64,000 nt of DNA from Sipunculus nudus (Eukaryota > Annelida > Sipuncula > Golfingiida > Sipunculidae). A model generated the notes under the pieces. The model searched no databases. It saw only the letters and a list, made by a program, of their open reading frames with translations, and had not been told where the DNA came from. How positions within the stretch are numbered: the first letter of the stretch is position 1; every line of letters starts with the position of its first letter. Below, in pieces: positions 1 to 64,000 of this stretch. Both the position numbers and the translations under genes were made by a program. The DNA lies in assembly GCA_026874595.1 (NCBI GenBank), contig CM049315.1, positions 63,237,389 to 63,301,388 on the forward strand. Direction: 5' to 3'.

Positions 1-14
1 AAAGAAGCGTTTTA

Positions 15-22
15 GAAGCTTC
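15..22. repeat. HindIII-containing palindrome GAAGCTTC (example)
   Basis: The 8-bp palindrome gaagcttc contains a HindIII site and lies at a fixed place in the monomer. It is present in a large share of monomers, while W types have gaagctcc and S or R types have tagcttca or aaacttca. Digestion with HindIII should give a ladder of about 129-bp multiples, a classic satellite signature. Confidence 0.9.
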
Positions 23-247
23 ATCAGGCCACTAAGAACCAGTTATAAACGTCTTTTACGCCGAAATCAGCTCGTTTTTTTCGTAATACAAGATCGTGAT
101 TTGTGCAGAAACGGCTGATTTAAACTGCAATAGAAGCGTTTTAATAGCTTCATTAGGCCATTTAGAAATTGGTAAAAACGTAGCTCTTGCTAAAATCCGA
201 TCGGTTTCGCGTAATACAACATCGTGTTGTGCAAAATAGAAGATTAA

Positions 248-571: not shown

Positions 572-1457
572 GCCGAAATCAGCTCGGTTTTTGCGTAATA
601 CAAAATCGTGTGTTGTGCAAAGATGACCGATTTAAACTGGGAAAGAAGCGATTCAAAAGCTTTATTAGTCGACTTAAAACCCGTTACAACCGTCGTTTTC
701 GCTGAAATAAGCTCGGTTTTTGCGTAGTACAAGATCGTGTGTTGGGCAAATATCACCGATTTAAACTGCGAGAGAAGAGATTCAATAGCTTCATAAGGCG
801 ACTTATAACCCGTTACAACCGTCGTTTTTGCCGAAATAAGCTCGGTTTTTCCGTAGTACAAGATCGTGTGTTGGGCAAATATCACCGATTAAAACTGCTA
901 AATAAGCATTTTAGAAACTTCATCAGGCCATTAAGAACCAGTTAGAAACGGTGTTTTTGCTGAAATCAGCTCGATTTTTTTAGCGTAATATAAGATCGTG
1001 TTTGTGCAAAAATGACCGATTTAAACTGCAAAAGAAGAGTTTAAGAAGCTTCAATAGGCCACTTCAAACCAGTTACAAAGATCTTTTTTGCCGAAATCGA
1101 CTCGGATTTTGCGTTATAATAGATCATGATTTGTGCAGAAATGGCCAGTTTAAACTGCGAAAGAAGCGTTTCAGAAACTTCATTAGGCGACTTAAAACCC
1201 GTTACAAAAGTCGTTTTCGCCGCAGTCAGCTGGGTTTTCGAGTACTACAAGATCGTGAGTTGTGCAAAAATGGCCGTTTAAATTGCAAATGAAGCGTTTT
1301 AATAGCTTCATCAGGCCATTTAAAACAAGTTACAAACGTCGTTTTTGCCGAAATCAGCAAGGTTTTCGCTTAATACAAGATCGCAGATTTAAATTGCAAA
1401 AGAATCAATTCAGGAGCTTTATTAGGCCATTTAGAACCAGATACCAACGTCTTTTTT
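572..1457 (+). repeat. S block, copy 1 (7 monomers incl. 111-bp monomer)
   Basis: A run of divergent monomers starting at 572, 701, 830, 959, 1090, 1219 and 1347. Markers are ttgggcaaatatcaccgatt (two monomers), tttttagcgtaatataaga, and a final 111-bp monomer (1347-1457) in which about 18 bp is missing between aagatcg and cagattt. The block is stable in order and is found six times in the window, so it tags the ancestral long HOR. The other copies are near 3,898, 11,682, 15,912, 24,664 and 43,989. Confidence 0.93.
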
Positions 1458-2894: not shown

Positions 2895-3897
2895 TACAAG
2901 ACCGTGTTTTGTGCAAAGATGACCGATTTAAACTGCCAAGGAAGCCTTTTAGAAGCTTCATCAGGCCATTAAGAACCAGTTAGCAACGTCGTTTTTGCTG
3001 AAATCAGCTCGATTTTTTGCGTAATACAAAATCGTGTGTTGTGCAAAGATGACCGATTTAAACTGCTTAAGAAGCGTTTTAGAAGCTTCATCAGGCCATT
3101 TAAAACCAGATACCAACGTCTTTTACGCCGGAATCAGCTCGGTTTTTGCGTAATACAAGACCGTGTTTTGTGCAAAGATGACCGATGTAAACGGCCTAGG
3201 AAGCCTTTTAGAAGCTTCATCAGGCCATCAAAAACCAGTTAGTAACGTCGTTTTTGCTGAAATCAGCTCGATTTTTTGCGTAATACAAAATCGTGTGTTG
3301 TGCAAAGATGACCGATTTAAACTGCTAAAGAAGCGTTTTAGAAGCTTCATCAGGCCATTAAGAACCAGTTAGAAACGTCTTTTACGCCGAAATCAGCTCT
3401 TTTTTTCGTAATACATGATCGTGATTTGTGCAGAAACGGCTGATTTAAACTGCGATAGAAGCGTTTTAATAGCTTCATTAGGCCATTTAGAAATTGGTAA
3501 AAACGTCGCTCTTGCTGAAATCAGATCGGTTTTCGCGTAATACAACATCGTGTTGTGCAAAATAGAAGATTAAAATTGCAAAAGAAGCAATTCAGAAGCT
3601 CCATTAGGCCATTTAGAACCGGGTACAAACATCGATCTCGCCGAAATCAGATAGGTTTTTGCCTAATTCAGGAACGTGTGTTGTGCAAAAATTACAGATT
3701 TAAATTGCAAAAGAAGCAATTCAGAAGCTCCATTAGGCCATTTAGAACCGGGTACAAACATCGATCTCGCCGAAATCAGCTAGGTTTTTGCCTAATTCAT
3801 GATCGTTTGTTGTGCAAAAATTGCAGATTTAAATTGCGAAAGAAGCAATTCAGAAGCTTCATTAGGCCGTTTAGAACCAGATACAAACATCTTTTAC

Positions 3898-4782
3898 GCC
3901 GAAATCAGCTCGGTTTTTGCGTAATACAAAATCGTGTGTTGTGCAAAGATGACCGATTTAAACTGGGAAAGAAGCGATTCAATAGCTTTATTAGTCGACT
4001 TAAAACCCGTTACAACCGTCGTTTTCGCTGAAATAAGCTCGGTTTTTGCGTAGTACAAGATCGTGTGTTGGGCAAATATCACCGATTTAAACTGCGAGAG
4101 AAGAGATTCAATAGCTTCATAAGGCGACTTATAACCCGTTACAACCGTCGTTTTCGCCGAAATAAGCTCGGTTTTGCGTAGTACAAGATCGTGTGTTGGG
4201 CAAATATCACCGATTAAAACTGCTAAATAAGCATTTTAGAAACTTCATCAGGCCATTAAGAACCAGTTAGAAACGGCGTTTTTGCTGAAATCAGCTCGAT
4301 TTTTTTAGCGTAATATAAGATCGTGTTTGTGCAAAAATGACCGATTTAAACTGCAAAAGAAGAGTTTAAGAAGCTTCAATAGGCCACTTCAAACCAGTTA
4401 CAAAGATCTTTTTTGCCGAAATCGACTCGGATTTTGCGTTATAATAGATCATGATTTGTGCAGAAATGGCCAGATTAAACTGCGAAAGAAGCGTTTCAGA
4501 AACTTCATTAGGCGACTTAAAACCCGTTACAAAAGTCGTTTTCGCCGCAGTCAGCTGGGATTTCGAGTACTACAAGATCGTGAGTTGTGCAAAAATGGCC
4601 GTTTAAATTGCAAATGAAGCGTTTTAATAGCTTCATCAGGCCATTTAAAACAAGTTACAAACGTCGTTTTTGCCGAAATCAGCAAGGTTTTCGCTTAATA
4701 CAAGATCGCAGATTTAAATTGCAAAAGAATCAATTCAGGAGCTTTATTAGGCCATTTAGAACCAGATACCAACGTCTTTTTC
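3898..4782 (+). repeat. S block, copy 2
   Basis: Same monomer order as 572-1457 at an offset of 3,325-3,326 bp. One T is missing in the T-tract near 4,172 (gctcggttttgcgtag), and this deletion is shared with the copy near 15,912. The block ends with the 111-bp monomer at 4672-4782. Two S blocks per long unit, about 3.3 kb apart here, show an older duplication inside the HOR. Confidence 0.92.
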
Positions 4783-7700
4783 GCCGAAATCAGATCGGTT
4801 TTTGCGTAATACAAGACCGTGTTTTGTGCAAAGATGACCGATTTCAACTGCCAAGGAAGCCTTTTAGAAGCTTCATCAGGCCATTAAGAACAAGTTTGCA
4901 ACGTCGTTTTTGCTGAAATCAGCTCGATTTTTTGCGTAACACAAAATCGTGTGTTGTGCAAAGATGACCGATTTAAACTGCTAAAGAAGCGTTTTAGAAG
5001 CTTCATCAGGCCATTAAGAACCAGTTAGAAACGTCTTTTACGCCGAAATGAGCTCGTTTTTTCGTAATACAAGATCGTGATTTGTGCAGAAACGGCTGAT
5101 TTAAACTGCGATAGAAGCATTTTAATAGCTTCATTAGGCCATTTAGAAATTGGTAAAAAACGTCGCTCTTGCAGAAATCAGATCGGTTTTCGCGTAATAC
5201 AACATCGTGTTGTGCAAAATAGAAGATTAAAATTGCAAAAGAAGCAATTCAGAAGCTCCATTAGGCCATTTAGAACCGGGTACAAACATCGATCTCGCCG
5301 AAATCAGCTAGGTTTTTGGCTAATTCAGGAACGTGTGTTGTGCAAAAATTTCAGATTTCAATTGCAAAAGAAGCAATTCAAAAGCTTCATTAGGCCGTTT
5401 AGATTCAGATACAAACGTCTGTTACGACGAAATCAGCTCGGTTTTTTCGTAATTCAAGATCGTGATTTGTGCAGAAACGGCTGAAATAAACTGCGATAGA
5501 AGCGTTTAAATAGCTTCATTAGGCCATTTAGAAATTGTTAAAAACGTCGCTTTTGCTGAAATCAGATCGGTTTTCGCGTAATACAACATCGTGTTGTGCA
5601 AAATAGAAGATTAAAATTGCAAAAGAAGCAATTCAGAAGCTCCATTAGGCAATTTAGAAGCGGGTACAAACATCGATCTCGCCGAAATCAGCTAGGTTTT
5701 TGGCTAATTCAGGAACGTGTGTTGTGCAAAAATTACAGATTTCAATTGCAAAAGAAGCAATTCAGAAGCTTCATTAGGCCGTTTAGAATCAGATACAAAC
5801 GTCTTTTACGACGAAATCAGCTCGGTTTTTTCCTAATACAAGATCGTGATTTGTGCAGAAACGGCTAATATAAACTGCGATAGAAGCGTTTAAATAGCTT
5901 CATTATGCCATTTAGAAATTGTTAAAAACGTCGCTTTTGCTGAAATCAGATCGGTTTTCGCTTAGTACAAGATCGTGTTGTGCAAAAAGAGAAGATTAAA
6001 ATTGCAAAAGAAGCAATTCAGAACCTCCATTAGGCCATTTAGAACCGGGTACAAACATCGATCTCGCCGAAATCAGCTCGATTTTTTTTTGCGTAATGCA
6101 AGATCGTGTTTGTGCAAATATTGCAGATTTAAATTGCAAAAGAATCAATTCAGGAGCTTTATTAGGCCATTTAAAACCAGATACCAACGTCTTTTCCGCC
6201 GGAATCAGCTCGGTTTTTGCGTAATACAAGACCGTGTTTTGTGCAAAGATGACCGATGTAAACGGCCTAGGAAGCCTTTTAGAAGCTTCATCAGGCCATC
6301 AAAAACCAGTTAGTAACGTCGTTTTTGCTGAAATCAGCTCGATTTTTTGCGTAATACAAAATCGTGTGTTGTGCAAAGATGACCGATTTAAACTGCTAAA
6401 GAAGCGTTTTAGAAGCTTCATCAGGCCATTAAGAACCAGTTAGAAACGTCTTTTACGCCGAAATCAGCTCTTTTTTTCGTAATACATGATCGTGATTTGT
6501 GCAGAAACGGCTGATTTAAACTGCGATAGAAGCGTTTTAATAGCTTCATTAGGCCATTTAGAAATTGTTAAAAACGTCGCTCTTGCTGAAATCAGATCGG
6601 TTTTCGCGTAATACAACATCGTGTTGTGCAAAATAGAAGATTAAAATTCCAAAAGAAGCAATTCAGAAGCTCCATTAGGCCATTTAGAACCGGATACAAG
6701 CATCCATCTCGCCGAAATCAGCTAGGTTTTTGGCTAATTCAGGAACGTGTGTTGTGCAAAAATTACAGATTTCAATTGCAAAAGAAGCAATTCAGAAGCT
6801 TCATTAGGCCGTTTAGAATCAGATACAAACGTCTTTTACGACGAAATCAGCTCGGTTTTTTCCTAATACAAGATCGTGATTTGTGCAGAAACGGCTAATA
6901 TAAACTGCGATAGAAGCGTTTAAATAGCTTCATTAGGCCATTTAGAAATTGTTAAAAACGTCGCTCTTGCTGAAATCAGATCGGTTTTCGCGTAGTACAA
7001 GATCGTGTCTTGTGCAATGATCACCGATTTAAACTGCGAAAGAAGCCTTTTAGAAGCTTCATCAGGCCATTAAGAACCAGTTAGAAACGTCGTTTTTGCT
7101 GAAATCAGCTCGATTTTCTTGCGTAATGCAAGATCGTGTTTGTGCAAATATTGCAGATTTAAATTGTAAAAGAATCAATTCAGGAGCTTTATTAGACCAT
7201 TTAGATCCAGATACCAACGTCTTTTTCGCCGAAATCAGCTCGTTTTTGCGTAATACAAGACCGTGTTTTGTGCAAAGATGACCGATTTAAACTGACAAGG
7301 AAGCCTTTTAGAAGCTTCATCAGGCCATTAAGAACCAGTTAGCAACGTCGTTTTTGCTGAAATCAGCTCGATTTTTTGCGTAATACAAAATCGTGTGTTG
7401 TGCAAAGATGACCGATTTAAACTGCTTAAGAAGCGTTTTAGAAGCTTCATCAGGCCATTGAGAACCAGTTAGAAACGTCTTTTACGCCGAAATCAGCTCG
7501 TTTTTTTCGTAATACAAGATCGTGATTTGTGCAGAAACGGCTGATTTAAACTGCGATAGAAGCGTTTTAATAGCTTCATTAGGCCATTTAGAAATTGGTA
7601 AAATCGTCGCTCTTGCTGAAATCAGATCGGTTTTTGCGTAATACAAGATCGTGTTTTGTGCAAAGATGACCGATTTAAACTGCTAAAGAAGCGTTTTAGA

Positions 7701-9656
7701 AGCTTCATCAGGCCACTAAGAACCAGTTAGAAACGTCTTTTACGCCGAAGTCAGCTCGTTTTTTTCGTAATACAAGATCGTGATTTGTGCAGAAACGGCT
7801 GATTTAAACTGCAATAGAAGCGTTTTAATAGCTTCATTAGGCCATTTAGAAATTGGTTAAAACGTCGCTCTTGCTGAAATCAGATCGGTTTTCGCGTAAT
7901 ACAACATCGTGTTGTGCAAAATAGAAGATTAAAATTGCAAAAGAAGCAATTCAGAAGCTCCATTAGGCCATTTAGAACCGGGTACAAACATCGATCTCGC
8001 CGAAATCAGATAGGTTTTTGGCTATTTCAGGAACGTGTGTTGTGCAAAAATTACAGATTTCAATTGCAAAAGAAGCAATTCAGAAGCTTCATTAGGCCGT
8101 TTAGAATCAGATACAAACGTCTTTTACGACGAAATCAGCTCGGTTTTTTCGTAATACAAGATCGTGATTTGTGCAGAAACGGCTGATATAAACTGCGATA
8201 GAAGCGTTTAAATAGCTTCATTAGGCCATTTAGAAATTGTTAAAAACGTCGCTTTTGCTGAAATCAGATCGGTTTGCGCGTAGTACAAGATCGTGTTGTG
8301 CAAAATAGAAGATTAAAATTGCAAAAGAAGCAATTCAGAAGCTCCATTAGGCCATTTAGAACCTGGTACAAACATCGATCTCGTCTAAATCAGATTGGTT
8401 TTTTGCCTAATTCATGATCGTGTGTTGTGCAAAAATTGCAGATTTAAATTGCAAAAGAAGCAATTCAGAAGCTTCATTCGGCCGTTTAGAACCAGATACA
8501 AACATCTTTTACGCCGAAATCAGCTCGGTTTTTGCGTAATACAAGATCGTGTTTTGTGCAAAGATGACCGATTTAAACTGCAAAAGAAGCGTTTAAGAAG
8601 CTTTATCAGGCCATTAAGAATCAGTTAGGAACGTCGTCTTTGCTGAAATCAGCTCGGTTTTTTTTTTGCGTAATATAAGATCGTGTGTTGTGCAAAGATG
8701 ATGATTTAAACTGCAAAAGAAGCGTTTGAGAAACTTCATTAGGCCATTTAGAACCAGTTAAAAATGTCGTTTTTTTGCCGAAATCAGCTCGGTTTTTGCG
8801 TAATATAGGATCCTGTTTTGTGCAAAATGGCCAATTTAAACTGCGATAGAAGCGTTTTAATAGCTTCATTAGGCCATTTAGAAATTGGTAAAAACGTCGC
8901 TCTTGCGGAAATCAAATCGGTTTTCGCGTAATACAACATCGTGTTGTGCAAAATAGAAGATTAAAATTGCAAAAGAAGCAATTCAGAAGCTCCATTAGGC
9001 CATTTAGAACCGGGTACAAACATCGATCTCGCCGAAATCAGCTAGGTTTTTGGCTAATTCAGGAACGTGTGTTGTGCAAAAATTACAGATTTCAATTGCA
9101 AAAGAAGCAATTCAGAAGCTTCATTAGGCTGTTTAGAATCAGATGCAAACGTCTTTTACGACGAAATCAGCTCGGTTTTTTCGTAATACAAGATCGTGAT
9201 TTGTGCAGAAACGGCTAATATAAACTGCGATAGAAGCGTTTAAATAGCTTCATTATGCCATTTAGAAATTGTTAAAAACGTCGCTTTTGCTGAAATCAGA
9301 TCGGTTTTCGCATAGTACAAGATCGTGTTGTGCAAAAGAGAAGATTAAAATTGCAAAAGAAGCAATTCAGAAGCTCCATTAGGCCATTTAGAACCGGGTA
9401 CAAACATCGATCTCGCCGAAATCAGCTAGGTTTTTCCCTAATTCATGATCGTGTGTTGTGCAAAAATTGCAGATTTAAATTGCAAAAGAAGCAATTCAGA
9501 AACTTTATTAGGCCGTTTAGAATCAGATACAAACGTCTTTTACGCCGAGATCAGCTTGGTTTTTGCGTAATACAAGATCGTGTTTTGTGCAAAGATGACC
9601 GATTTAAACTGCTAAAGAAGCGTTTTAGAAGCTTCATCAGGCAATTAAGAAGTTAG

Positions 9657-10837: not shown

Positions 10838-11036
10838 GCCGAAATCAGCTAGGTTTTTCCCTAATTCATAATCGTGTGTTGTGCAAAAATTGCAGATTTA
10901 AATTGCAAAAGAAGCAATTCAGAAACTTTATTAGGCCGTTTAGAATCAGATACAAACGTCTTTCGATTTAAACTGCTAAGGAAGCGTTTTAGAAGCTTCA
11001 TCAGGCCATTAAGAACCAGTTAGTAACGTCGTTCTT
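10838..11036 (+). repeat. Truncated monomer pair (59-bp internal deletion)
   Basis: The spacing between start boxes at 10,838 and 11,037 is 199 bp, where two monomers should give 258. The junction reads acaaacgtcttt then cgatttaaactgc near 10,961-10,965. The start box, T-tract and tgtgcaaagatgac box of one monomer are missing. The homologous place in copy 2 (about 23,100-23,190) is intact, so this is a deletion private to copy 1, lying just before the boundary with copy 2. Confidence 0.92.
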
Positions 11037-13893: not shown

Positions 13894-15911
13894 CGTGTTG
13901 TGCAAAATAGAAGATTAAAATTGCAAAAGAAGCAATTCAGAAGCTCCATTAGGCCATTTAGAACCGGGTACAAACATCGATCTCGCCGAAATCAGATAGG
14001 TTTTTGGCTATTTCAGGAACGTGTGTTGTGCAAATATTACAGATTTCAATTGCAAAAGAAGCAATTCAGAAGCTTCATTAGGCCGTTTAGAATCAGATAC
14101 AAACGTCTTTTACGACGAAATCAGCTCGGTTTTTTTCGTAATACAAGATCGTGATTTGTGCAGAAACGGCTGAAATAAACTGCGATAGAAGCGTTTAAAT
14201 AGCTTTATAAGGCCATTTAGAAATTGTTAAAAACGTCGCTTTTGCTGAAATCAGATCGGTTTTTGCGTAATACAACATCGTGTTGTGCAAAATAGAAGAT
14301 TAAAATTGCAAAAGAAGCAATTCAGAAGCTCCATTAGGCCATTTAGAACCGGGTACAAACATCGATCTCGCCGAAATCAGCTAGGTTTTTGGCTAATTCA
14401 GCAACGTGTGTTGTGCAAAAATTACAGATTTCAATTCCAAAAGAAGCAATTCAGAAGCTTCATTAGGCCGTTTAGAATCAGATACAAACGTCTTTTACGA
14501 CGAAATCAGCTCGGTTTTTTCCTAATACAAGATCGTGATTTGTGCAGAAACGGCTAATATAAACTGCGATAGAAGCGTTTAAATAGCTTCATTATGCCAT
14601 TTAGAAATTGTTAAAAACGTCGCTTTTGCTGAAATCATATCGGTTTTCGCTTAGTACAAGATCGTGTTGTGCAAAAGAGAAGATTAAAATCGCAAAAGAA
14701 GCAATTCAGAAGCTCCATTAGGCCATTTAGAACCGGGTACAAACATCGATCTCGCCGAAATCAGCTAGGTTTTTCCCTAATTCATGATCGTGTGTTGTGC
14801 AAAAATTGCAGATTTAAATTGCAAAAGAAGCAATTCAGAAACTTTATTAGGCCGTTTAGAATAAGATACAAACGTCTTTTACGCCGAAATCAGCTCGTTT
14901 TTGCGTAATACAAGACCGTGTTTTGTGCAAAGATGACCGATTTAAACTGCCAAGGAAGCCTTTTAGAAGCTTCATCAGGCCATTAAGAACCAGTTAGCAA
15001 CGTCGTTTTTGCTGAAATCAGCTCGATTTTTTGCGTAATACAAAATCGTGTGTTGTGCAAAGATGACCGATTTAAACTGCTTAAGAAGCGTTTTAGAAGC
15101 TTCATCAGGCCATTGAGAACCAGTTAGAAACGTCTTTTACACCGAAATCAGCTCGTTTTTTTCGTAATACAAGATCGTGATTTGTGCAGAAACGGCTGAT
15201 TTAAACTGCGATAGAAGCGTTTTAATAGCTTCATTAGGCCATTTAGAAATTGGTAAAAACGTCGCTCTTGCTGAAATCAGATCGGTTTTTGCGTAATACA
15301 AGATAGTGTTTTGTGCAAAGATGACCAATTTAAACTGCTAAAGAAGCGTTTTAGAAGCTTCATCAGGCCACTAAGAACCAGTTAGAAACGTCTTTTACGC
15401 CGAAATCAGCCCGTTTTTTTCGTAATACAAGATCGTGATTTGTGCAGAAACGGCTGATTTAAACTGCAATAGAAGCGTTTTAATAGCTTCATTAGGCCAT
15501 TTAGAAATTGGTAAAAACGTCGCTCTTGCTGAAATCCGATCGGTTTTCGCGTAATACAACATCGTGTTGTGCAAAATAGAAGATTAAAATTGCAAAAGAA
15601 GCAATTCAGAAGCTCCATTAGGCCATTTAGAACCGGGTACAAACATCGATCTCGCCGAAATCAGATAGGTTTTTGCCTAATTCAGGAACGTGTGTTGTGC
15701 AAAAATTACAGATTTAAATTGCAAAAGAAGCAATTCAGAAGCTCCATTAGGCCATTTAGAACCGGGTACAAACATCGATCTCGCCGAAATCAGCTAGGTT
15801 TTTGCCTAATTCATGATCGTGTGTTGTGCAAAAATTGCAGATTTAAATTGCGAAAGAAGCAATTCAGAAGCTTCATTAGGCCGTTTAGAACCAGATACAA
15901 ACATCTTTTAC

Positions 15912-16796
15912 GCCGAAATCAGCTCGGTTTTTGCGTAATACAAAATCGTGTGTTGTGCAAAGATGACCGATTTAAACTTGGAAAGAAGCGATTCAATAGC
16001 TTTATTAGTCGACTTAAAACCCGTTACAACCGTCGTTTTCGCTGAAATAAGCTCGGTTTTTGCGTAGTACAAGATCGTGTGTTGGGCAAATATCACCGAT
16101 TTAAACTGCGAGAGAAGAGATTCAATAGCTTCATAAGGCGACTTATAACCCGTTACAACCGTCGTTTTCGCCGAAATAAGCTCGGTTTTGCGTAGTACAA
16201 GATCGTGTGTTGGGCAAATATCACCGATTAAAACTGCTAAATAAGCATTTTAGAAACTTCATCAGGCCATTAAGAACCAGTTAGAAACGGCGTTTTTGCT
16301 GAAATCAGCTCGATTTTTTTAGCGTAATATAAGATCGTGTTTGTGCAAAAATGACCGATTTAAACTGCAAAAGAAGAGTTTAAGAAGCTTCAATAGGCCA
16401 CTTCAAACCAGTTACAAAGATCTTTTTTGCCGAAATCGACTCGGATTTTGCGTTATAATAGATCATGATTTGTGCAGAAATGGCCAGATTAAACTGCGAA
16501 AGAAGCGTTTCAGAAACTTCATTAGGCGACTTAAAACCCGTTACAAAAGTCGTTTTCGCCGCAGTCAGCTCGGTTTTCGAGTACTACAAGATCGTGAGTT
16601 GTGCAAAAATGGCCGTTTAAATTGCAAATGAAGCGTTTTAATAGCTTCATCAGGCCATTTAAAACAAGTTACAAACGTCGTTTTTGCCGAAATCAGCAAG
16701 GTTTTCGCTTAATACAAGATCGCAGATTTAAATTGCAAAAGAATCAATTCAGGAGCTTTATTAGGCCATTTAGAACCAGATACCAACGTCTTTTTC
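15912..16796 (+). repeat. S block, copy 4
   Basis: Matches 3,898-4,782 at an offset of 12,014 bp and shares its one-base T-tract deletion, so it descends from that copy and not from the neighbouring copy at 11,682. The 111-bp monomer is at 16686-16796. Confidence 0.92.
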
Positions 16797-19700
16797 GCCG
16801 AAATCAGATCGGTTTTTGCGTAATACAAGACCGTGTTTTGTGCAAAGATGACCGATTTCAACTGCCAAGGAAGCCTTTTAGAAGCTTCATCAGGCCATTA
16901 AGAACAAGTTAGCAACGTCGTTTTTGCTGAAATCAGCTCGATTTTTTGCGTAACACAAAATCGTGTGTTGTGCAAAGATGACCGATTTAAACTGCTAAAG
17001 AAGCGTTTTAGAAGCTTCATCAGGCCATTAAGAACCAGTTAGAAACGTCTTTTACGCCGAAATCAGCTCGTTTTTTCGTAATACAAGATCGTGATTTGTG
17101 CAGAAACGGCTGATTTAAACTGCGATAGAAGCATTTTAATAGCTTCATTAGGCCATTTAGAAATTGGTAAAAACGTCGCTCTTGCAGAAATCAGATCGGT
17201 TTTCGCGTAATACAACATCGTGTTGTGCAAAATAGAAGATTAAAATTGCAAAAGAAGCAATTCAGAAGCTCCATTAGGCCATTTAGAACCGGGTACAAAC
17301 ATCGATCTCGCCGAAATCAGCTAGGTTTTTGGCTAATTCAGGAACGTGTGTTGTGCAAAAATTACAGATTTCAATTGCAAAAGAAGCAATTCAAAAGCTT
17401 CATTAGGCCGTTTAGATTCAGATACAAACGTCTGTTACGACGAAATCAGCTCGGTTTTTTCGTAATACAAGATCGTGATTTGTGCAGAAACGGCTGAAAT
17501 AAACTGCGATAGAAGCGTTTAAATAGCTTCATTAGGCCATTTAGAAATTGTTAAAAACGTCGCTTTTGCTGAAATCAGATCGGTTTTCGCGTAATACAAC
17601 ATCGTGTTGTGCAAAATAGAAGATTAAAATTGCAAAAGAAGCAATTCAGAAGCTCCATTGGGCAATTTAGAAGCGGGTACAAACATCGATCTCGCCGAAA
17701 TCAGCTAGGTTTTTGGCTAATTCAGGAACGTGTGTTGTGCAAAAATTACAGATTTCAATTGCAAAAGAAGCAATTCAGAAGCTTCATTAGGCCGTTTAGA
17801 ATCAGATACAAACGTCTTTTACGACGAAATCAGCTCGGTTTTTTCCTAATACAAGATCGTGATTTGTGCAGAAACGGCTAATATAAACTGCGATAGAAGC
17901 GTTTAAATAGCTTCATTATGCCATTTAGAAATTGTTAAAAACGTCGCTTTTGCTGAAATCAGATCGGTTTTCGCTTAGTACAAGATCGTGTTGTGCAAAA
18001 AGAGAAGATTAAAATTGCAAAAGAAGCAATTCAGAAGCTCCATTAGGCCCTTTAGAACCGGGTACAAACATCGATCTCGCCGAAATCAGCTCGATTTTTT
18101 TTTGCGTAATGCAAGATCGTGTTTGTGCAAATATTGCAGATTTAAATTGCAAAAGAATCAATTCAGGAGCTTTATTAGGCCATTTAAAACCAGATACCAA
18201 CGTCTTTTCCGCCGAAATCAGCTCGGTTTTTGCGTAATAGAAGACCGTGTTTTGTGCAAAGATGACCGATTTAAACTGCCAAGGAAGCCTTTTAGAAGCT
18301 TCATCAGGCCATCAAAAACCAGTTAGTAACGTCGTTTTTGCTGAAATCAGCTCGATTTTTTGCGTAATACAAAATCGTGTGTTGTGCAAAGATGACCGAT
18401 TTAAACTGCTAAAGAAGCGTTTTAGAAGCTTCATCAGGCCATTAAGAACCAGTTAGAAACGTCTTTTACGCCGAAATCAGCTCTTTTTTTCGTAATACAT
18501 GATCGTGATTTGTGCAGAAACGGCTGATTTAAACTGCGATAGAAGCGTTTTAATAGCTTCATTAGGCCATTTAGAAATTGGTAAAAAACGTCGCTCTTGC
18601 TGAAATCAGATCGGTTTTCGCGTAATACAACATCGTGTTGTGCAAAATAGAAGATTAAAATTCCAAAAGAAGCAATTCAGAAGCTCCATTAGGCCATTTA
18701 GAACCGGATACAAACATCCATCTCGCCGAAATCAGCTAGGTTTTTGGCTAATTCAGGAACGTGTGTTGTGCAAAAATTACAGATTTCAATTGCAAAAGAA
18801 GCAATTCAGAAGCTTCATTAGGCCGTTTAGAATCAGATACAAACGTCTTTTACGACGAAATCAGCTCGGTTTTTTCCTAATACAAGATCGTGATTTGTGC
18901 AGAAACGGCTAATATAAACTGCGATAGAAGCGTTTAAATAGCTTCATTAGGCCATTTAGAAATTGGTAAAAACGTCGCTCTTGCTGAAATCAGATCGGTT
19001 TTCGCGTAGTACAAGATCGTGTCTTGTGCAATGATCACCGATTTAAACTGCGAAAGAAGCCTTTTAGAAGCTTCATCAGGCCATTAAGAACCAGTTAGAA
19101 ACGTCGTTTTTGCTGAAATCAGCTCGATTTTCTTGCGTAATGCAAGATCGTGTTTGTGCAAATATTGCAGATTTAAATTGTAAAAGAATCAATTCAGGAG
19201 CTTTATTAGACCATTTAGATCCAGATACCAACGTCTTTTTCGCCGAAATCAGCTCGTTTTTGCGTAATACAAGACCGTGTTTTGTGCAAAGATGACCGAT
19301 TTAAACTGCCAAGGAAGCCTTTTAGAAGCTTCATCAGGCCATTAAGAACCAGTTAGCAACGTCGTTTTTGCTGAAATCAGCTCGATTTTTTGCGTAATAC
19401 AAAATCGTGTGTTGTGCAAAGATGACCGATTTAAACTGCTTAAGAAGCGGTTTAGAAGCTTCATCAGGCCATTGAGAACCAGTTAGAAACGTCTTTTACG
19501 CCGAAATCAGCTCGTTTTTTTCGTAATACAAGATCGTGATTTGTGCAGAAACGGCTGATTTAAACTGCGATAGAAACGTTTTAATAGCTTAATTAGGCCA
19601 TTTAGAAATTGGTAAAATCGTCGCTCTTGCTGAAATCAGATCGGTTTTTGCGTAATACAAGATCGTGTTTTGTGCAAAGATGACCGATTTAAACTGCTAA

Positions 19701-21627
19701 AGAAGCGTTTTAGAAGCTTCATCAGGCCACTGAGAACCAGTTAGAAACGTCTTTTACGCCGAAGTCAGCTCGTTTTTTTCGTAATACAAGATCGTGATTT
19801 GTGCAGAAACGGCTGATTTAAACTGCAATAGAAGCGTTTTAATAGCTTCATTAGGCCATTTAGAAATTGGTAAAAACGTCGCTCTTGCTGAAATCAGATC
19901 GGTTTTCGCGTAATACAACATCGTGTTGTGCAAAATAGAAGATTAAAATTGCAAAAGAAGCAATTCAGAAGCTCCATTAGGCCATTTAGAACCGGGTACA
20001 AACATCGATCTCGCCGAAATCAGATAGGTTTTTGGCTATTTCAGGAACGTGTGTTCTGCAAATATTACAGATTTCAATTGCAAAAGAAGCAATTCAGAAG
20101 CTTCATTAGGCCGTTTAGAATCAGATACAAACGTCTTTTACGACGAAATCAGCTCGGTTTTTTCGTAATACAAGATCGTGATTTGTGCAGAAACGGCTGA
20201 TATAAACTGCGATAGAAGCGTTTAAATAGCTTCATTAGGCCATTTAGAAATTGTTAAAAACGTCGCTTTTGCTGAAATCAGATCGGTTTGCGCGTAGTAC
20301 AAGATCGTGTTGTGCAAAATAGAAGATTAAAATTGCAAAAGAAGCAATTCAGAAGCTCCATTAGGCCATTTAGAACCTGGTACAAACATCGATCTCGTCT
20401 AAATCAGATTGGTTTTTTGCCTAATTCATGATCGTGTGTTGTGCAAAAATTGCAGATTTAAATTGCAAAAGAAGCAATTCAGAAGCTTCATTCGGCCGTT
20501 TAGAACCAGATACAAACATCTTTTACGCCGAAATCAGCTCGGTTTTTGCGTAATACAAGATCGTGTTTTGTGCAAAGATGACCGATTTAAACTGCAAAAG
20601 AAGCGTTTAAGAAGCTTTATCAGGCCATTAAGAATCAGTTAGGAACGTCGTTTTTGCTGAAATCAGCTCGGTTTTTTTATTTTGCGTAATATAAGATCGT
20701 GTGTTGTGCAAAGATGATGATTTAAACTGCAAAAGAAGCGTTTGAGAAACTTCATTAGGCCATTTAGAACCAGTTAAAAATGTCGTTTTTTTTGCCGAAA
20801 TCAGCTCGGGTTTTGCGTAATATAGGATCCTGTTTTGTGCAAAATGGCCAATTTAAACTGCGATAGAAGCGTTTTAATAGCTTCATTAGGCCATTTAGAA
20901 ATTGGTAAAAACGTCGCTCTTGCGGAAATCAAATCGGTTTTCGCGTAATACAACATCGTGTTGTGCAAAATAGAAGATTAAAATTGCAAAAGAAGCAATT
21001 CAGAAGCTCCATTAGGCCATTTAGAACAGGGTACAAACATCGATCTCGCCGAAATCAGCTAGGTTTTTGGCTAATTCAGGAACGTGTGTTGTGCAAAAAT
21101 TACAGATTTCAATTGCAAAAGAAGCAATTCAGAAGCTTCATTAGGCCGTTTAGAATCAGATGCAAACGTCTTTTACGACGAAATCAGCTCGGTTTTTTCG
21201 TAATACAAGATCGTGATTTGTGCAGAAACGGCTAATATAAACTGCGATAGAAGCGTTTAAATAGCTTCATTATGCCATTTGGAAATTGTTAAAAACGTCG
21301 CTTTTGCTGAAATCAGATCGGTTTTCGCATAGTACAAGATCGTGTTGTGCAAAAGAGAAGATTAAAATTGCAAAAGAAGCAATTCAGAAGCTCCATTAGG
21401 CCATTTAGAACCGGGTACAAACATCGATCTCGCCGAAATCAGCTAGGTTTTTCCCTAATTCATGATCGTGTGTTGTGCAAAAATTGCAGATTTAAATTGC
21501 AAAAGAAGCAATTCAGAAACTTTATTAGGCCGTTTAGAATCAGATACAAACGTCTTTTACGCCGAAATCAGCTCGGTTTTTGCGTAATACAAGATCGTGT
21601 TTTGTGCAAAGATGACCGATTTAAACT

Positions 21628-55357: not shown

Positions 55358-57678
55358 TTGTCCAAAGATGACCGATTTAAACTGCAAAAGAAGAGTTTAA
55401 GAAGCTTCAATAGGCCACTTAAAACCAGTTACAAAGATCTTTTTTGCCGAAATCGACTCGGTTTTTGCGTTATAATAGATCATGATCCGTGCAAAAATGG
55501 TCAGTTTAAACTGCGAAAGAAGCGTTTCAGAAACTTCATTAGGCGACTTAAAACCCGTTACAATCGTCGTTTTCGTCGCAATCAGCTCGGTTTTCGCGTA
55601 CTACAAGATCGTGTGTTGTGCAAAAATGGCCGTTTAAATTGCAAATGAAGCGTTTTAATAGCTTCATCAGGCCATTTAAAACAAGTTACAAACGTCGTTT
55701 TTGCCGAAATCAGCTCGGTTTTCGCTTTAAACATGATCGTGTCTTGTGCAATGATCACCGATTTAAACTGTGAAAGAAGCGTTTTAGAAGCTTCATCAGG
55801 CCATTAAGAACCAGTTAGAAACGTCGTTTTTGCTGAAATCAGCTCGATTTTTTTTTTTTTTGCGTAATGCAAGATCGTGTTTGTGCAAATATTGCATATT
55901 TAAATTGCAAAAGAATCAATTAAGGAGCTTTATTAGGCCATTTAAAACCAGATACCAACGTCTTTTCCGCCGAAATCAGCTCGGTTTTTGCGTAATACAA
56001 GACCGTGTTTTGTGCAAAGATGACCGATTTAAACTGCCAAGGAAGCCTTTTAGAAGCTTCATCAGGCCATCAAAAACCAGTTAGTAACGTCGTTTTTGCT
56101 GAAATCAGCTCGATTTTTTGCGTAATACAAAATCGTGTGTTGTGCAAAGATGACAGATTTAAACTGCTAAAGAAGCGTTTTAGAAGCTTCATCAGGCCAT
56201 TAAGAACCAGTTAGAAACGTCTTTTACGCCGAAATCAGCTCTTTTTTTCGTAATACAAGATCGTGATTTGTGCAGAAACGGATGATTTAAACTGCGATAG
56301 AAGCGTTTTAATAGCTTCATTAGGCCATTTAGAAATTGGTAAAAACGTCGCTCTTGCAGAAATCAAATCGGTTTTCGCGTAATACAACATCGTGTTGTGC
56401 AAAATAGAAGATTAAAATTGCAAAAGAAGCAATTCAGAAGCTCCATTAGGCCATTTAGAACCGGGTACAAACATCGATCTCGCCGAAATCAGCTAGGTTT
56501 TTGGCTAATTCAGGAACGTGTGTTGTGCAAAAATTACAGATTTCAATTGCAAAAGAAGCAATTCAGAAGCTTCATTAGGCCGTTTAGAATCAGATACAAA
56601 CGTCTGTTACGACGAAATCAGCTCGGTTTTTTCGTAATACAAGATCGTGATTTGTACAGAAACGGCTAAAATAAACTGCGATAGAAGCGTTTAAATAGCT
56701 TCATTAGGCCATTTAGAAATTGTTAAAAACGTCGCTTTTGCTGAAATCAGATCGGTTTTCGCGTAATACAACATCGTGTTGTGCAAAATAGAAGATGAAA
56801 ATTGCAAAAGAAGCAATTCAGAAGCTCCATTAGGCCATTTAGAACCGGGTACAAACATCGATCTCGCCGAAATCAGCTAGGTTTTTGGCTAATTCAGGAA
56901 CGTGTGTTGTGCAAAAATTACAGATTTCAATTGCAAAAGAAGCAATTCAGAAGCTTCATAAGGCCGTTTAGAATCAGATACAAACGTCTTTTACGACGAA
57001 ATCAGCTCGGTTTTTTCGTAATACAAGATCGTGATTTGTGCAGAAACGGCTAATATAAACTGCGATAGAAGCGTTTAAATAGCTTCATTATGCCATTTAG
57101 AAATTGTTAAAAACGTCGCTTTTGCTGAAATCAGATCGGTTTTCGCTTAGTACAAGATCGTGTTGTGCAAAAGAGAAGATTAAAATTGCAAAAGAAGCAA
57201 TTCAGAAGCTCCATTAGGCCATTTAGAACCGGGTACAAACATCGATCTCGCCGAAATCAGCTAGGTTTTTCCCTAATTCATGATCGTGTGTTGTGCAAAA
57301 ATTGCAGATTTAAATTGCAAAAGAAGCAATTCAGAAACTTTATTAGGCCGTTTAGAATCAGATACAAACGTCTTTTACGCCGAAATCAGCTCGGTTTTTG
57401 CGTAATACAAGATCGTGTTTTGTGCAAAGATGACCGATTTAAACTGCGAAAGAAGCGTTTTAAAAGCTTCATCAGGCCATTAAGAACCAGTTAGCAACGT
57501 CGTTTTTGCTGAAATCAGTTCGGTTTTTTTTGCGTAATTCAAAATCGTCTGTTGTGCAAAGATGACCGGTTTAAACTGCTAAAGAAGCGTTTTAGAAGCT
57601 TCATCAGGCAATTAAGAAGTTAGAAACGTCGTTTTTGCTAAAATCAGCTCGATTTTTTAGCGTAATATAAGATGGTGT
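55358..57678 (+). repeat. D-phase HOR unit 4 (2,321 bp, 18 monomers)
   Basis: Same order as unit 3 but with one extra 384-bp W-F-R trimer: starts at 56,397, 56,781 and 57,165 against two starts in unit 3. The trimer plus a few small indels accounts for the 391-bp length difference. Private features include a T-tract of 14 at 55,848-55,861 and attgcatatttaaattgc near 55,892. Confidence 0.92.
55848..55861 (+). repeat. Expanded T-tract (T14) in a second monomer lineage
   Basis: Here the tract follows ctcga, not ctcgg, and precedes gcgtaatgcaagatcg. The same monomer in other units has T8-T9 (near 43,103, 48,240, 53,928, 58,169 and 61,129). The expansion is therefore private to this HOR unit and independent of the ctcgg lineage. 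Confidence 0.85.
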
Positions 57679-60636
57679 TTGTCCAAAGATGACCGATTTA
57701 AACTGCAAAAGAAGAGTTTAAGAAGCTTCAATAGGCCACTTAAAACCAGTTACAAAGATCTTTTTTGCCGAAATCGACTCGGTTTTTGCGTTATAATAGA
57801 TCATGATCCGTGCAAAAATGGTCAGTTTAAACTGCGAAACAAGCGTTTCAGAAACTTCATTAGGCGACTTAAAACCCGTTACAATCGTCGTTTTCGTCGC
57901 AATCAGCTCGGTTTTCGCGTACTACAAGATCGTGTGTTGTGCAAAAATGGCCGTTCAAATTGCAAATGAAGCGTTTTAATAGCTTCATCAGGCCATTTAA
58001 AACAAGTTACAAACGTCGTTTTTGCCGAAATCAGCTCGGTTTTCGCTTTAAACAAGATCGTGTCTTGTGCAATGATCACCGATTTAAACTGTGAAAGAAG
58101 CGTTTTAGAAGCTTCATCAGGCCATTAAGAACCAGTTAGAAACGTCGTTTTTCCTGAAATCAGCTCGATTTTTTTTTGCGTAATGCAAGATCGTGTTTGT
58201 GCAAATATTGCAGATTTAAATTGCAAAAGAATCAATTAAGGAGCTTTATTAGGCCATTTAAAACCAGATACCAACGTCTTTTCCGCCGAAATCAGCTCGG
58301 TTTTTGCGTAATACAAGACCGTGTTTTGTGCAAAGATGACCGATTTAAACTGCCAAGGAAGCCTTTTAGAAGCTTCATCAGGCCATCAAAAACCAGTTAG
58401 TAACGTCGTTTTTGCTGAAATCAGCTCGATTTTTTGCGTAATACAAAATCGTGTGTTGTGCAAAGATGACCGATTTAAACTGCTAAAGAAGCGTTTTAGA
58501 AGCTTCATCAGGCCATTAAGAACCAGTTAGAAACGTCTTTTACGCCGAAATCAGCTCTTTTTTTCGTAATACATGATCGTGATTTGTGCACAAACGGCTG
58601 ATTTAAACTGCGATAGAAGCGTTTTAATAGCTTCATTAGGCCATTTAGAAATTGGTAAAAACGTCGCTCTTGCTGAAATCAGATCAGTTTTCGCGTAATA
58701 CAACATCGTGTTGTGCAAAATAGAAGATTAAAATTGCAAAAGAAGCAATTCAGAAGCTCCATTAGGCAATTTAGAACCGGATACAAATATCCATCTCGCC
58801 GAAATCAGCTAGGTTTTTGGCTAATTCAGGAACGTGTGTTGTGCAAAAATTACAGATTTCAATTGCAAAAGAAGCAATTCAGAGGCTTCATTAGGCCGTT
58901 TAGAATCAGATACAAACGTCTTTTACGACGAAATCAGCTCGGTTTTTTCGTAATACAAGATCGTGATTTGTGCAGAAACGGCTAATATAAACTGCGATAG
59001 AAGCGTTTAAATAGCTTCATTAGGCCATTTAGAAATTGTTAAAAACGTCGCTCTTGCTGAAATCAGATCGGTTTTTGCGTAATACAAGATCGTGTTTTGT
59101 GCAAAGATGACCGATTTAAACTACTAAAGAAGCGTTTTAGAAGCTTCATCAGGCCACTAAGAACCAGTTAGAAACGTCTTTTACGCCGAAATCAGCTCGT
59201 TTTTTTCGTAATACAAGATCGTGATTTGTGCAGAAACGGCTGATTTAAACTGCAATAGAAGCGTTTTAATAGCTTCATTAGGCCATTTAGAAATTGGTAA
59301 AAACGTCGCTCTTGCAGAAATCAAATCGGTTTTCGCGTAATACAACATCGTGTTGTGCAAAATAGAAGATTAAAATTGCAAAAGAAGCAATTCAGAAGCT
59401 CCATTAGGCCATTTAGAACCGGGTACAAACATCGATCTCGCCGAAATCAGCTAGGTTTTTGGCTAATTCAGGAACGTGTGTTGTGCAAAAATTACAGATT
59501 TCAATTGCAAAAGAAGCAATTCAGAAGCTTCATTAGGCCGTTTAGAATCAGATACAAACGTCTGTTACGACGAAATCAGCTCGGTTTTTTCGTAATACAA
59601 GATCGTGATTTGTACAGAAACGGCTAAAATAAACTGCGATAGAAGCGTTTAAATAGCTTCATTAGGCCATTTAGAAATTGTTAAAAACGTCGCTTTTGCT
59701 GAAATCAGATCGGTTTTCGCGTAATACAACATCGTGTTGTGCAAAATAGAAGATTAAAATTGCAAAAGAAGCAATTCAGAAGCTCCATTAGGCCATTTAG
59801 AACCGGGTACAAACATCGATCTCGCCGAAATCAGCTAGGTTTTTGGCTAATTCAGGAACGTGTGTTGTGCAAAAATTACAGATTTCAATTGCAAAAGAAG
59901 CAATTCAGAAGCTTCATAAGGCCGTTTAGAATCAGATACAAACGTCTTTTACGACGAAATCAGCTCGGTTTTTTCGTAATACAAGATCGTGATTTGTGCA
60001 GAAACGGCTAATATAAACTGCGATAGAAGCGTTTAAATAGCTTCATTATGCCATTTAGAAATTGTTAAAAACGTCGCTTTTGCTGAAATCAGATCGGTTT
60101 TCGCTTAGTACAAGATCGTGTTGTGCAAAAGAGAAGATTAAAATTGCAAAAGAAGCAATTCAGAAGCTCCATTAGGCCATTTAGAACCGGGTACAAACAT
60201 CGATCTCGCCGAAATCAGCTAGGTTTTTCCCTAATTCATGATCGTGTGTTGTGCAAAAATTGCAGATTTAAATTGCAAAAGAAGCAATTCAGAAACTTTA
60301 TTAGGCCGTTTAGAATCAGATACAAACGTCTTTTACGCCGAAATCAGCTCGGTTTTTGCGTAATACAAGATCGTGTTTTGTGCAAAGATGACCGATTTAA
60401 ACTGCGAAAGAAGCGTTTTAAAAGCTTCATCAGGCCATTAAGAACCAGTTAGCAACGTCGTTTTTGCTGAAATCAGTTCGGTTTTTTTTGCGTAATTCAA
60501 AATCGTCTGTTGTGCAAAGATGACCGGTTAAAACTGCTAAAGAAGCGTTTTAGAAGCTTCATCAGGCAATTAAGAAGTTAGAAACGTCGTTTTTGCTAAA
60601 ATCAGCTCGATTTTTTAGCGTAATATAAGATGGTGT
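57679..60636 (+). repeat. D-phase HOR unit 5 (2,958 bp, ~23 monomers)
   Basis: Same as unit 4 plus a 5-monomer block at about 58,713-59,354 (642 bp), which repeats a W-F-R start followed by ctactaaagaagcg and cactaagaacc monomers. Shared private markers with unit 6 are gcgaaacaagcgtttcag, aaactactaaagaagc, gattagaccggataca-type changes such as acaaatatccatc, and ttttcctgaaatcagc. The two are the closest pair of long units in the window. Confidence 0.93.
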
Positions 60637-63595
60637 TTGTCCAAAGATGACCGATTTAAACTGCAAAAGAAGAGTTTAAGAAGCTTCAATAGGCCACTTA
60701 AAACCAGTTACAAAGATCTTTTTTGCCGAAATCGACTCGGTTTTTGCGTTATAATAGATCATGATCCGTGCAAAAATGGTCAGTTTAAACTGCGAAACAA
60801 GCGTTTCAGAAACTTCATTAGGCGACTTAAAACCCGTTACAATCGTCGTTTTCGTCGCAATCAGCTCGGTTTTCGCGTACTACAAGATCGTGTGTTGTGC
60901 AAAAATGGCCGTTCAAATTGCAAATGAAGCGTTTTAATAGCTTCATCAGGCCATTTAAAACAAGTTACAAACGTCGTTTTTGCCGAAATCAGCTCGGTTT
61001 TCGCTTTAAACAAGATCGTGTCTTGTGCAATGATCACCGATTTAAACTGTGAAAGAAGCGTTTTAGAAGCTTCATCAGGCCATTAAGAACCAGTTAGAAA
61101 CGTCGTTTTTCCTGAAATCAGCTCGATTTTTTTTTTGCGTAATGCAAGATCCTGTTTGTGCAAATATTGCAGATTTAAATTGCAAAAGAATCAATTAAGG
61201 AGCTTTATTAGGCCATTTAAAACCAGATACCAACGTCTTTTCCGCCGAAATCAGCTCGGTTTTTGCGTAATACAAGACCGTGTTTTGTGCAAAGATGACC
61301 GATTTAAACTGCCAAGGAAGCCTTTTAGAAGCTTTATCAGGCCATCAAAAACCAGTTAGTAACGTCGTTTTTGCTGAAATCAGCTCGATTTTTTGCGTAA
61401 TACAAAATCGTGTGTTGTGCAAAGATGACCGATTTAAACTGCTAAAGAAGCGTTTTAGAAGCTTTATCAGGCCATTAAGAACCAGTTAGAAACGTCTTTT
61501 ACGCCGAAATCAGCTCTTTTTTTCGTAATACATGATCGTGATTTGTGCACAAACGGCTGATTTAAACTGCGATAGAAGCGTTTTAATAGCTTCATTAGGC
61601 CATTTAGAAATTGGTAAAAACGTCGCTCTTGCTGAAATCAGATCAGTTTTCGCGTAATACAACATCGTGTTGTGCAAAATAGAAGATTAAAATTGCAAAA
61701 GAAGCAATTCAGAAGCTCCATTAGGCAATTTAGAACCGGATACAAATATCCATCTCGCCGAAATCAGCTAGGTTTTTGGCTAATTCAGGAACGTGTGTTG
61801 TGCAAAAATTACAGATTTCAATTGCAAAAGAAGCAATTCAGAGGCTTCATTAGGCCGTTTAGAATCAGATACAAACGTCTTTTACGACGAAATCAGCTCG
61901 GTTTTTTCGTAATACAAGATCGTGATTTGTGCAGAAACGGCTAATATAAACTGCGATAGAAGCGTTTAAATAGCTTCATTAGGCCATTTAGAAATTGTTA
62001 AAAACGTCGCTCTTGCTGAAATCAGATCGGTTTTTGCGTAATACAAGATCGTGTTTTGTGCAAAGATGACCGATTTAAACTACTAAAGAAGCGTTTTAGA
62101 AGCTTCATCAGGCCACTAAGAACCAGTTAGAAACGTCTTTTTCGCCGAAATCAGCTCGTTTTTTTCGTAATACAAGATCGTGATTTGTGCAGAAACGGCT
62201 GATTTAAACTGCAATAGAAGCGTTTTAATAGCTTCATTAGGCCATTTAGAAATTGGTAAAAACGTCGCTCTTGCAGAAATCAAATCGGTTTTCGCGTAAT
62301 ACAACATCGTGTTGTGCAAAATAGAAGATTAAAATTGCAAAAGAAGCAATTCAGAAGCTCCATTAGGCCATTTAGAACCGGGTACAAACATCGATCTCGC
62401 CGAAATCAGCTAGGTTTTTGGCTAATTCAGGAACGTGTGTTGTGCAAAAATTACAGATTTCAATTGCAAAAGAAGCAATTCAGAAGCTTCATTAGGCCGT
62501 TTAGAATCAGATACAAACGTCTGTTACGACGAAATCAGCTCGGTTTTTTCGTAATACAAGATCGTGATTTGTACAGAAACGGCTAAAATAAACTGCGATA
62601 GAAGCGTTTAAATAGCTTCATTAGGCCATTTAGAAATTGTTAAAAACGTCGCTTTTGCTGAAATCAGATCGGTTTTCGCGTAATACAACATCGTGTTGTG
62701 CAAAATAGATGATTAAAATTGCAAAAGAAGCAATTCAGAAGCTCCATTAGGCCATTTAGAACCGGGTACAAACATCGATCTCGCCGAAATCAGCTAGGTT
62801 TTTGGCTAATTCAGGAACGTGTGTTGTGCAAAAATTACAGATTTCAATTGCAAAAGAAGCAATTCAGAAGCTTCATAAGGCCGTTTAGAATCAGATACAA
62901 ACGTCTTTTACGACGAAATCAGCTCGGTTTTTTCGTAATACAAGATCGTGATTTGTGCAGAAACGGCTAATATAAACTGCGATAGAAGCGTTTAAATAGC
63001 TTCATTATGCCATTTAGAAATTGTTAAAAACGTCGCTTTTGCTGAAATCAGATCGGTTTTCGCTTAGTACAAGATCGTGTTGTGCAAAAGAGAAGATTAA
63101 AATTGCAAAAGAAGCAATTCAGAAGCTCCATTAGGCCATTTAGAACCGGGTACAAACATCGATCTCGCCGAAATCAGCTAGGTTTTTCCCTAATTCATGA
63201 TCGTGTGTTGTGCAAAAATTGCAGATTTAAATTGCAAAAGAAGCAATTCAGAAACTTTATTAGGCCGTTTAGAATCAGATACAAACGTCTTTTACGCCGA
63301 AATCAGCTCGGTTTTTGCGTAATACAAGATCGTGTTTTGTGCAAAGATGACCGATTTAAACTGCGAAAGAAGCGTTTTAAAAGCTTCATCAGGCCATTAA
63401 GAACCAGTTAGCAACGTCGTTTTTGCTGAAATCAGTTCGGTTTTTTTTGCGTAATTCAAAATCGTCTGTTGTGCAAAGATGACCGGTTTAAACTGCTAAA
63501 GAAGCGTTTTAGAAGCTTCATCAGGCAATTAAGAAGTTAGAAACGTCGTTTTTGCTAAAATCAGCTCGATTTTTTAGCGTAATATAAGATGGTGT
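60637..63595 (+). repeat. D-phase HOR unit 6 (2,959 bp, ~23 monomers)
   Basis: Near-identical tandem copy of unit 5 at an offset of 2,958-2,959 bp (58,713 to 61,672; 59,355 to 62,314; 60,123 to 63,082). Differences by eye are few: gatcctgtttgtg near 61,150, gcttttatcagg-type changes (gaagctttatcagg) near 61,331 and 61,459, ctttttcgccg near 62,138, and ataga-tgattaaaa near 62,707. Confidence 0.93.
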
Positions 63596-64000
63596 TTGTC
63601 CAAAGATGACCGATTTAAACTGCAAAAGAAGAGTTTAAGAAGCTTCAATAGGCCACTTAAAACCAGTTACAAAGATCTTTTTTGCCGAAATCGACTCGGT
63701 TTTTGCGTTATAATAGATCATGATCCGTGCAAAAATGGTCAGTTTAAACTGCGAAACAAGCGTTTCAGAAACTTCATTAGGCGACTTAAAACCCGTTACA
63801 ATCGTCGTTTTCGTCGCAATCAGCTCGGTTTTCGCGTACTACAAGATCGTGTGTTGTGCAAAAATGGCCGTTCAAATTGCAAATGAAGCGTTTTAATAGC
63901 TTCATCAGGCCATTTAAAACAAGTTACAAACGTCGTTTTTGCCGAAATCAGCTCGGTGTTCGCTTTATACAAGATCGTGTCTTTTGCAATGATCACCGAT
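63596..64000 (+). repeat. D-phase HOR unit 7 (partial, cut by window end)
   Basis: Begins with the same D monomer as units 5 and 6, including gcgaaacaagcg near 63,754. It runs to the last base, with private changes agctcggtgttcgctttatac and gtgtcttttgcaatg near 63,952-63,990. The array clearly continues beyond the window. Confidence 0.9.

What the first reader, a model, noticed from the sequence alone, without database searches (positions are those of the whole stretch)
1..64000. Nested higher-order repeat architecture in an unrecognised 129-bp satellite
Several hierarchical levels coexist: 129-bp monomers, a 384-bp trimer, units of 1.0, 1.8, 1.9, 2.3, 2.96 and 4.39 kb, and an 11-13 kb unit. 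Divergent monomers sit next to each other while copies of the same long unit are nearly identical, the pattern known from human alpha-satellite HORs. A functional centromere or another actively homogenising heterochromatic locus is a reasonable inference.
Basis: partly seen in the sequence, partly recalled or inferred. Interest (0 to 1): 0.75.

Follow-up and report, generated by a model that had tools for sequence, protein, structure and literature searches.

The report
Likely centromere satellite with giant repeats
The whole window is one tandem array of a 129-base repeat that has been copied again in multi-kilobase blocks, and close relatives of the repeat turn up mainly at one interior site per chromosome on all 17 chromosomes of this genome, which makes it a good but untested centromere candidate.

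Summary
All 64 kb are head-to-tail ~129-bp monomers (498). Neighbours are 77% identical, no closer than random pairs (78%), yet 81.5% of the window lies in runs of at least 8 monomers, each at least 98% identical to a copy elsewhere in it.

The array extends from about 62.45 to 64.10 Mb of a 79.6-Mb chromosome. It includes a 15,327-bp, 119-monomer unit whose two fully read copies differ at 2 positions. The family was found on 17 of 17 chromosome-scale scaffolds, mainly at one interior site each; C4 has two. Sampled stretches on 10 chromosomes are near-uniform monomers (93-99%); C12 and C15 show higher-order units.

Best reading: a centromeric or immediately pericentromeric satellite, homogenised on C10 by long-range unequal exchange or break-induced replication. 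Centromere function is inferred: no CENH3 or FISH data are held here. It is a new family of a known kind. Species unknown.

The parts
1..64000 (+). 129-bp satellite array, 498 monomers, all in one orientation; part of a C10 array of about 1.65 Mb
   Evidence: extent from sampled stretches
26134..33095 (+). 54-monomer block, copy 1 of a duplication with period 4386 bp (34 monomers)
   Evidence: 99.78% identical to 30520-37478
30520..37478 (+). 54-monomer block, copy 2 of the 4386-bp duplication (overlaps copy 1)
3327..9613 (+). 49-monomer block, copy 1 at offset 12,013 bp
   Evidence: 99.27% identical to 15340-21630
15340..21630 (+). 49-monomer block, copy 2 at offset 12,013 bp
56169..60922 (+). 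37-monomer block, copy 1 of a duplication with period about 2957 bp (23 monomers)
   Evidence: 99.73% identical to 59126-63881
59126..63881 (+). 37-monomer block, copy 2 of the 2957-bp duplication (overlaps copy 1)
1288..1398 (+). 111-bp shortened monomer; five more at 4613-4723, 12398-12508, 16627-16737, 25380-25490, 44705-44815. Its junction is the C10 marker
10908..10977 (+). 70-bp truncated monomer

Best explanation
This is the chromosome-10 array of a genome-wide 129-bp satellite that most likely forms, or directly flanks, the centromere of each chromosome. On C10 divergent monomers are copied together as multi-kilobase blocks (2.9, 4.4, 12 and up to 15.3 kb) by out-of-register exchange or break-induced replication, so block copies are 98.8-99.99% identical while neighbouring monomers differ by about 23%. 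Shown: the satellite, the block structure, chromosome-biased variants, presence on 17 of 17 chromosomes mainly at one interior site each. Inferred: the exchange mechanism, recent activity, centromere function.
For: Block copies: nine aligned pairs at 98.80-99.78%; 81.5% of the window in copied runs; a 15,327-bp unit of 119 monomers with 2 differences between two whole copies. The block period changes along the array. Presence on C1-C17. In the four complete place lists, 127 of 135 places lie in one cluster per chromosome, 4 on C4 at 35 Mb and 4 on small contigs. Sites lie at 0.29-0.79 of scaffold length. Nearest neighbour on the same chromosome for 953 of 1116 sampled monomers against 6.5% after label permutation.
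Against: No CENH3, FISH or Hi-C data. C4 has two sites (28.15-28.25 and 35.02-35.06 Mb), C3 a second one at 45.04, and satellite sits at the C6 scaffold start and the C10 scaffold end. Sampled arrays on 10 of 17 chromosomes are near-uniform without a clear HOR, so HORs are not a general property of the family. No CENP-B box core: 0 exact on either strand. A first-order Markov model of class order explains the total of matched runs. Patterns see only close variants, so other sites may be missed.
Confidence: 0.65

Rival explanations
1. A heterochromatin satellite that spreads and homogenises at interior sites without carrying the kinetochore; CENH3 sits on another sequence on each chromosome.
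For: Second sites on C3 and C4 and scaffold-end copies. In the oyster the most abundant satellite, Cg170, does not cover the centromeres of all chromosomes and CenH3 associates with several repeat types (PMC7348941, passages).
Against: One main cluster per chromosome on 16 of 17 and no listed place elsewhere on the arms apart from those named (complete; cut at 100).
Confidence: 0.2
2. The C10 array is an old, decaying relic: the active centromere satellite is the uniform monomer type, and C10's divergent blocks are an inactive or flanking layer.
For: C10 monomers are the most distant from other chromosomes (median nearest neighbour elsewhere 0.845 for the window) and neighbours differ by 23%, whereas 10 chromosomes have near-uniform stretches. 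At 62.45 Mb the C10 edge monomers are closer to other chromosomes (0.953, 9 monomers).
Against: Decay would strike each copy on its own, yet long blocks stay 98.8-99.99% identical. The array spans about 1.65 Mb. The listed C10 places lie in this array or at the scaffold end; no uniform C10 array was seen, but sampling was thin.
Confidence: 0.1
3. The long periods are made or inflated by the assembler.
For: Copies of the 15,327-bp unit differ at only 2 positions, strand switches often sit at 500-N gaps, so copy number and order may be unreliable.
Against: Most long pairs in the window differ by 10-40 substitutions spread over 2.8-7 kb, which separate copies would show and a duplicated read path would not. 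The window holds no N.
Confidence: 0.04

Closest known systems
Human alpha satellite HOR arrays
   Same: Divergent monomers inside a unit, near-identical units, chromosome-specific unit types, blocks of different unit length along one array (PMC8997354, passages).
   Different: 129 bp against 171 bp (the latter recalled). No CENP-B box core found. Unit of 119 monomers here against 34 for the longest human HOR named in PMC8997354. Sampled arrays on 10 chromosomes are near-uniform monomers.
Oyster Cg170/HindIII satellite (166 bp)
   Same: Satellite with centromeric localisation in a bivalve (PMC7348941, passages); only relevant if this genome is a mollusc, which is my guess.
   Different: 166 bp, interspersed and carried in Helitron elements, absent from some centromeres, according to those passages. 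Sequence not compared here: no Cg170 letters were at hand.
Tribolium madens (peri)centromeric satellites with macro-dyad symmetries
   Same: Multi-megabase putative (peri)centromeric satellite on all chromosomes, with orientation switches (PMC13081366, passages).
   Different: Here 3 of 4 strand switches read coincide with 500-N gaps; one, on C10 near 62.4498 Mb, has no gap. No regular dyad pattern was tested.

Membership tests
HOR-organised satellite DNA | head-to-tail monomers of one family over long distance | tested here: met
HOR-organised satellite DNA | neighbouring monomers divergent while copies of the multi-monomer unit are near-identical | tested here: met
   neighbours 0.769; nine block pairs 98.80-99.78%; 15,327-bp unit 99.99%
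HOR-organised satellite DNA | chromosome-specific unit | tested here: inconclusive
   marker of the 111-bp monomer: the 100 listed of 125 matches are all on C10; 25 not listed
HOR-organised satellite DNA | one regular unit or clean nesting through the array | tested here: not met
   mosaic of periods; Markov control. Not required by all definitions; human arrays also hold mixed layers (PMC8997354 passages)
Centromeric satellite | present on every chromosome | tested here: met
   17 of 17 scaffolds C1-C17
Centromeric satellite | one interior site per chromosome | tested here: inconclusive
   main cluster on 16, two on C4; further copies at C3 45.04 Mb, C6 start, C10 end; some lists cut at 100
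Centromeric satellite | CENH3/CENP-A occupancy and primary constriction | not testable with these tools
   no chromatin or cytology data
Primate alpha satellite | CENP-B box (core TTCGNNNNANNCGGG, recalled) | tested here: not met
   0 exact on either strand. With one mismatch 0 and 1, two mismatches 91 and 156, against 2 and 38 in one strand of one base shuffle. Not every alpha monomer carries the box
Oyster Cg170 satellite | 166-bp monomer | tested here: not met
   129 bp here; 166 bp from PMC7348941 passage; sequence not compared

The most novel reading that the evidence does not exclude
One satellite family marks the centromere of all 17 chromosomes but exists in two opposite states: homogenised over short range into near-identical monomers on most chromosomes, and homogenised over long range on C10 into units of up to 119 monomers. 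One genome would then hold a natural comparison of how the scale of centromere recombination differs between chromosomes.
Probability: 0.35. Interest if true: 0.62.

Novelty: new member of a known kind. Interest (0 to 1): 0.47.

Why it matters
If CENH3 confirms it, this genome offers the putative centromeres of 17 chromosomes built on one 129-bp family, with near-uniform and deep-HOR arrays side by side. The competing models of HOR growth (unequal exchange, break-induced replication) could then be compared between chromosomes of one individual. A 119-monomer unit is well beyond the 34 monomers given for the longest human HOR in PMC8997354 (passages); I did not survey other species for longer ones.

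Tried and rejected
CENP-B box: core absent (near-matches with two mismatches are commoner than in the one shuffle, as expected when one monomer segment recurs). True inversions inside arrays: of 4 strand switches read, 3 fall on 500-N gaps and may be scaffolding; one on C10 is gap-free. Self-megablast for block coverage returned only zeros, judged a failed set-up, replaced by monomer-run coverage. DNA search with window 1-400 returned 69 matches, all on C10, but only 39 of 1389 candidates were scored, so it cannot show absence elsewhere.

Organism: the 18S family search failed twice. The COX1 family gave 11 matches: nine of 577-578 aa on C60, C61, C62, C66, C72, C74, C75 and C89, one on C123, one short piece on C5 with a TGA. 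I read ORFs only around the C60 and C123 copies; these look bacterial. The relatives of the C61 copy (best 58% identity) do not point to a host. A mollusc, perhaps a bivalve, is my guess from the C5 piece and from an H2B-like start at the C1 end (by eye) and 17 chromosomes; not tested. Seventeen chromosomes also occur in a crustacean (Tethysbaena scabra, 1.18 Gb; listing), Tridacna gigas (1,175.9 Mb; listing) and Mya arenaria (1.22 Gb; passage). None matches 1.43 Gb.

Literature: '129-bp satellite' 0 papers; '129 bp' with satellite, mollusc, monomer 0; '129 bp' with satellite, centromere, higher-order repeat 1, on the human X. Searches did not identify the genome; one search gave the oyster paper.

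Full report
What is there. The window is C10:63,237,389-63,301,388 of a 1.4265-Gb assembly in 153 contigs. C1-C17 are 61-111 Mb; C18-C20 are 52-92 kb. TRF rows of period 129, 258 and 384 span the window. A circular alignment to the consensus gives 498 monomers: 247 of 129 bp, six of 111 bp, one of 70 bp. The window has no N.

Higher-order structure. Neighbouring monomers are 76.9% identical on average and all pairs 78.4%, so neighbours are not close relatives, yet the median monomer has an identical copy in the window. Clustering at 6% distance gives 33 classes whose order repeats in long runs. Nine long pairs that I picked from that list align at 98.80-99.78%: 54 monomers at 4386 bp (99.78%), 37 at 2957 bp (99.73%), 49 at 12,013 bp (99.27%), and six more. 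Runs of at least 8 monomers, each at least 98% identical, cover 52,183 of 64,000 bp; in three order shuffles the longest run is 3. Against a clean hierarchy: a first-order Markov model of class order reproduces the total of matched runs (2963 against 3051), though not the longest (27 at most in 20 simulations against 54), and the trimer signal is weak. I read this as a mosaic of overlapping tandem duplications of different sizes.

The array beyond the window. Short stretches of C10 are satellite at 62.5, 62.6, 62.7, 62.8, 62.9, 63.0, 63.15, 63.4, 63.65, 63.9, 64.0, 64.05 and 64.1 Mb, and not at 61.5, 62.0, 62.1, 62.2, 62.3, 62.4, 64.2 and 64.5 Mb. Satellite is also present at 62.4485-62.4500 Mb. 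A 46-base marker at the junction after the 111-bp monomer has 125 matches with up to 3 mismatches; the 100 listed are all on C10, 62.61-64.10 Mb, and 25 are not listed. Their spacings change along the array: 2941 bp six times; 15,327, 3328, 3324, 2817 and 2172 three times each (unlisted matches could split some spacings). Two whole 15,327-bp copies differ at 2 positions; the first 6 kb of the third differ from them at 1 and 0. The unit holds 119 monomers, neighbours 76.6% identical, 30 of the 119 without a 97% partner inside the unit.

Other chromosomes. Patterns carrying rare variants found the family on each of C1-C17. Lists were complete (62 places; 52; 13; 8), and cut at 100 (of 3790; of 1014; of 111; of 125). 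In the complete lists 127 of 135 places fall in one cluster per chromosome on 12 chromosomes (C2, C3, C6-C9, C11-C13, C15-C17); 4 are on C4 at 35.04-35.06 Mb and 4 on small contigs C42 and C145. C1, C5, C10, C14 and C4 28.15-28.25 Mb rest on the cut lists. So C4 has two sites, and which is the main one is open. Further copies: C3 45.04 Mb behind a 500-N gap, C6 scaffold start, C10 scaffold end. With 28.15 Mb taken for C4, the 17 sites lie at 0.29-0.79 of scaffold length.

State of the other arrays. In stretches of roughly 1.4-9 kb, C3, C4, C6, C7, C8, C11, C13, C14, C16 and C17 have neighbours 0.932-0.992 identical. C12 (0.827; 0.959 at lag 36), C15 (0.903; 0.994 at lag 43) and perhaps C1 (0.930; 0.986 at lag 28) show higher-order units, though each best lag rests on 18-32 comparisons. 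C5 (0.824, 0.889), C9 (0.792) and parts of C2 (0.802 and 0.803; other parts 0.950 and 0.958) have divergent neighbours. Nearest neighbours are on the same chromosome for 953 of 1116 monomers, 6.5% after permuting labels. That count used only the first 12 kb of the window, left out monomers outside 100-160 bp and seven small C10 stretches, and copies within one stretch count toward it.

How it probably works. The pattern fits the described route to HORs: variants accumulate in monomers, then sets of monomers are duplicated together by unequal exchange or break-induced replication (PMC8997354, passages). On C10 the copied segment is long; elsewhere near-identical neighbours point to short-range turnover or recent expansion. 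One interior site per chromosome is what a monocentric centromere satellite would give; this last step is inference. No CENP-B box core was found. The consensus has a slight internal 21-bp periodicity (0.411; 99% of 500 shuffles below 0.403), a hint at an origin from shorter repeats.

Limits. The organism is unknown; bivalve is a guess. Pattern searches see only close variants, so absence elsewhere is not proved. Copy numbers of near-identical blocks may depend on the assembly.

Noticed in passing
G000:C10 near 62,449,766 (L173 1265-1269): Gap-free switch of satellite orientation, minus to plus, inside the left part of the C10 array: a possible true inversion junction.
   Followed up: partly
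C2 near 68.430 and 68.481 Mb, C13 near 45.203 Mb (L026, L054, L053): Strand switches of the satellite at 500-N gaps; probably contig orientation in scaffolding.
   Followed up: partly
G000:C6:1-3000 and C10:79,636,000-79,641,139 (L010, L037, L169, L153): Satellite at a scaffold start and a scaffold end: subtelomeric copies or misplaced array contigs.
   Followed up: partly
G000:C17:26,261,379-26,262,892 (L063): About 1.5 kb of other DNA inside the array with matching inverted ends and A/T-rich subterminal repeats, looking like a DNA transposon inserted in a monomer (by eye).
   Followed up: no
C60, C61, C62, C66, C72, C74, C75, C89, C123: Contigs of the assembly with bacterial-type cytochrome oxidase genes, C61 and C62 about 2 Mb; symbionts or contaminants. 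Only the C60 and C123 copies were read for neighbouring genes.
   Followed up: partly
ends of C1 and C2 (L146, L147): H2B-like and H4-like gene starts at scaffold ends, so histone clusters may break the assembly there (by eye).
   Followed up: no
G000:C5:67,852,325-67,852,477: Short COX1-like piece with a TGA in frame: probably mitochondrial DNA in the nuclear genome.
   Followed up: partly
satellite consensus, 129 bp: Internal periodicity at 21 and 42 bp just above the 99% level of shuffles: perhaps built from a shorter repeat.
   Followed up: partly
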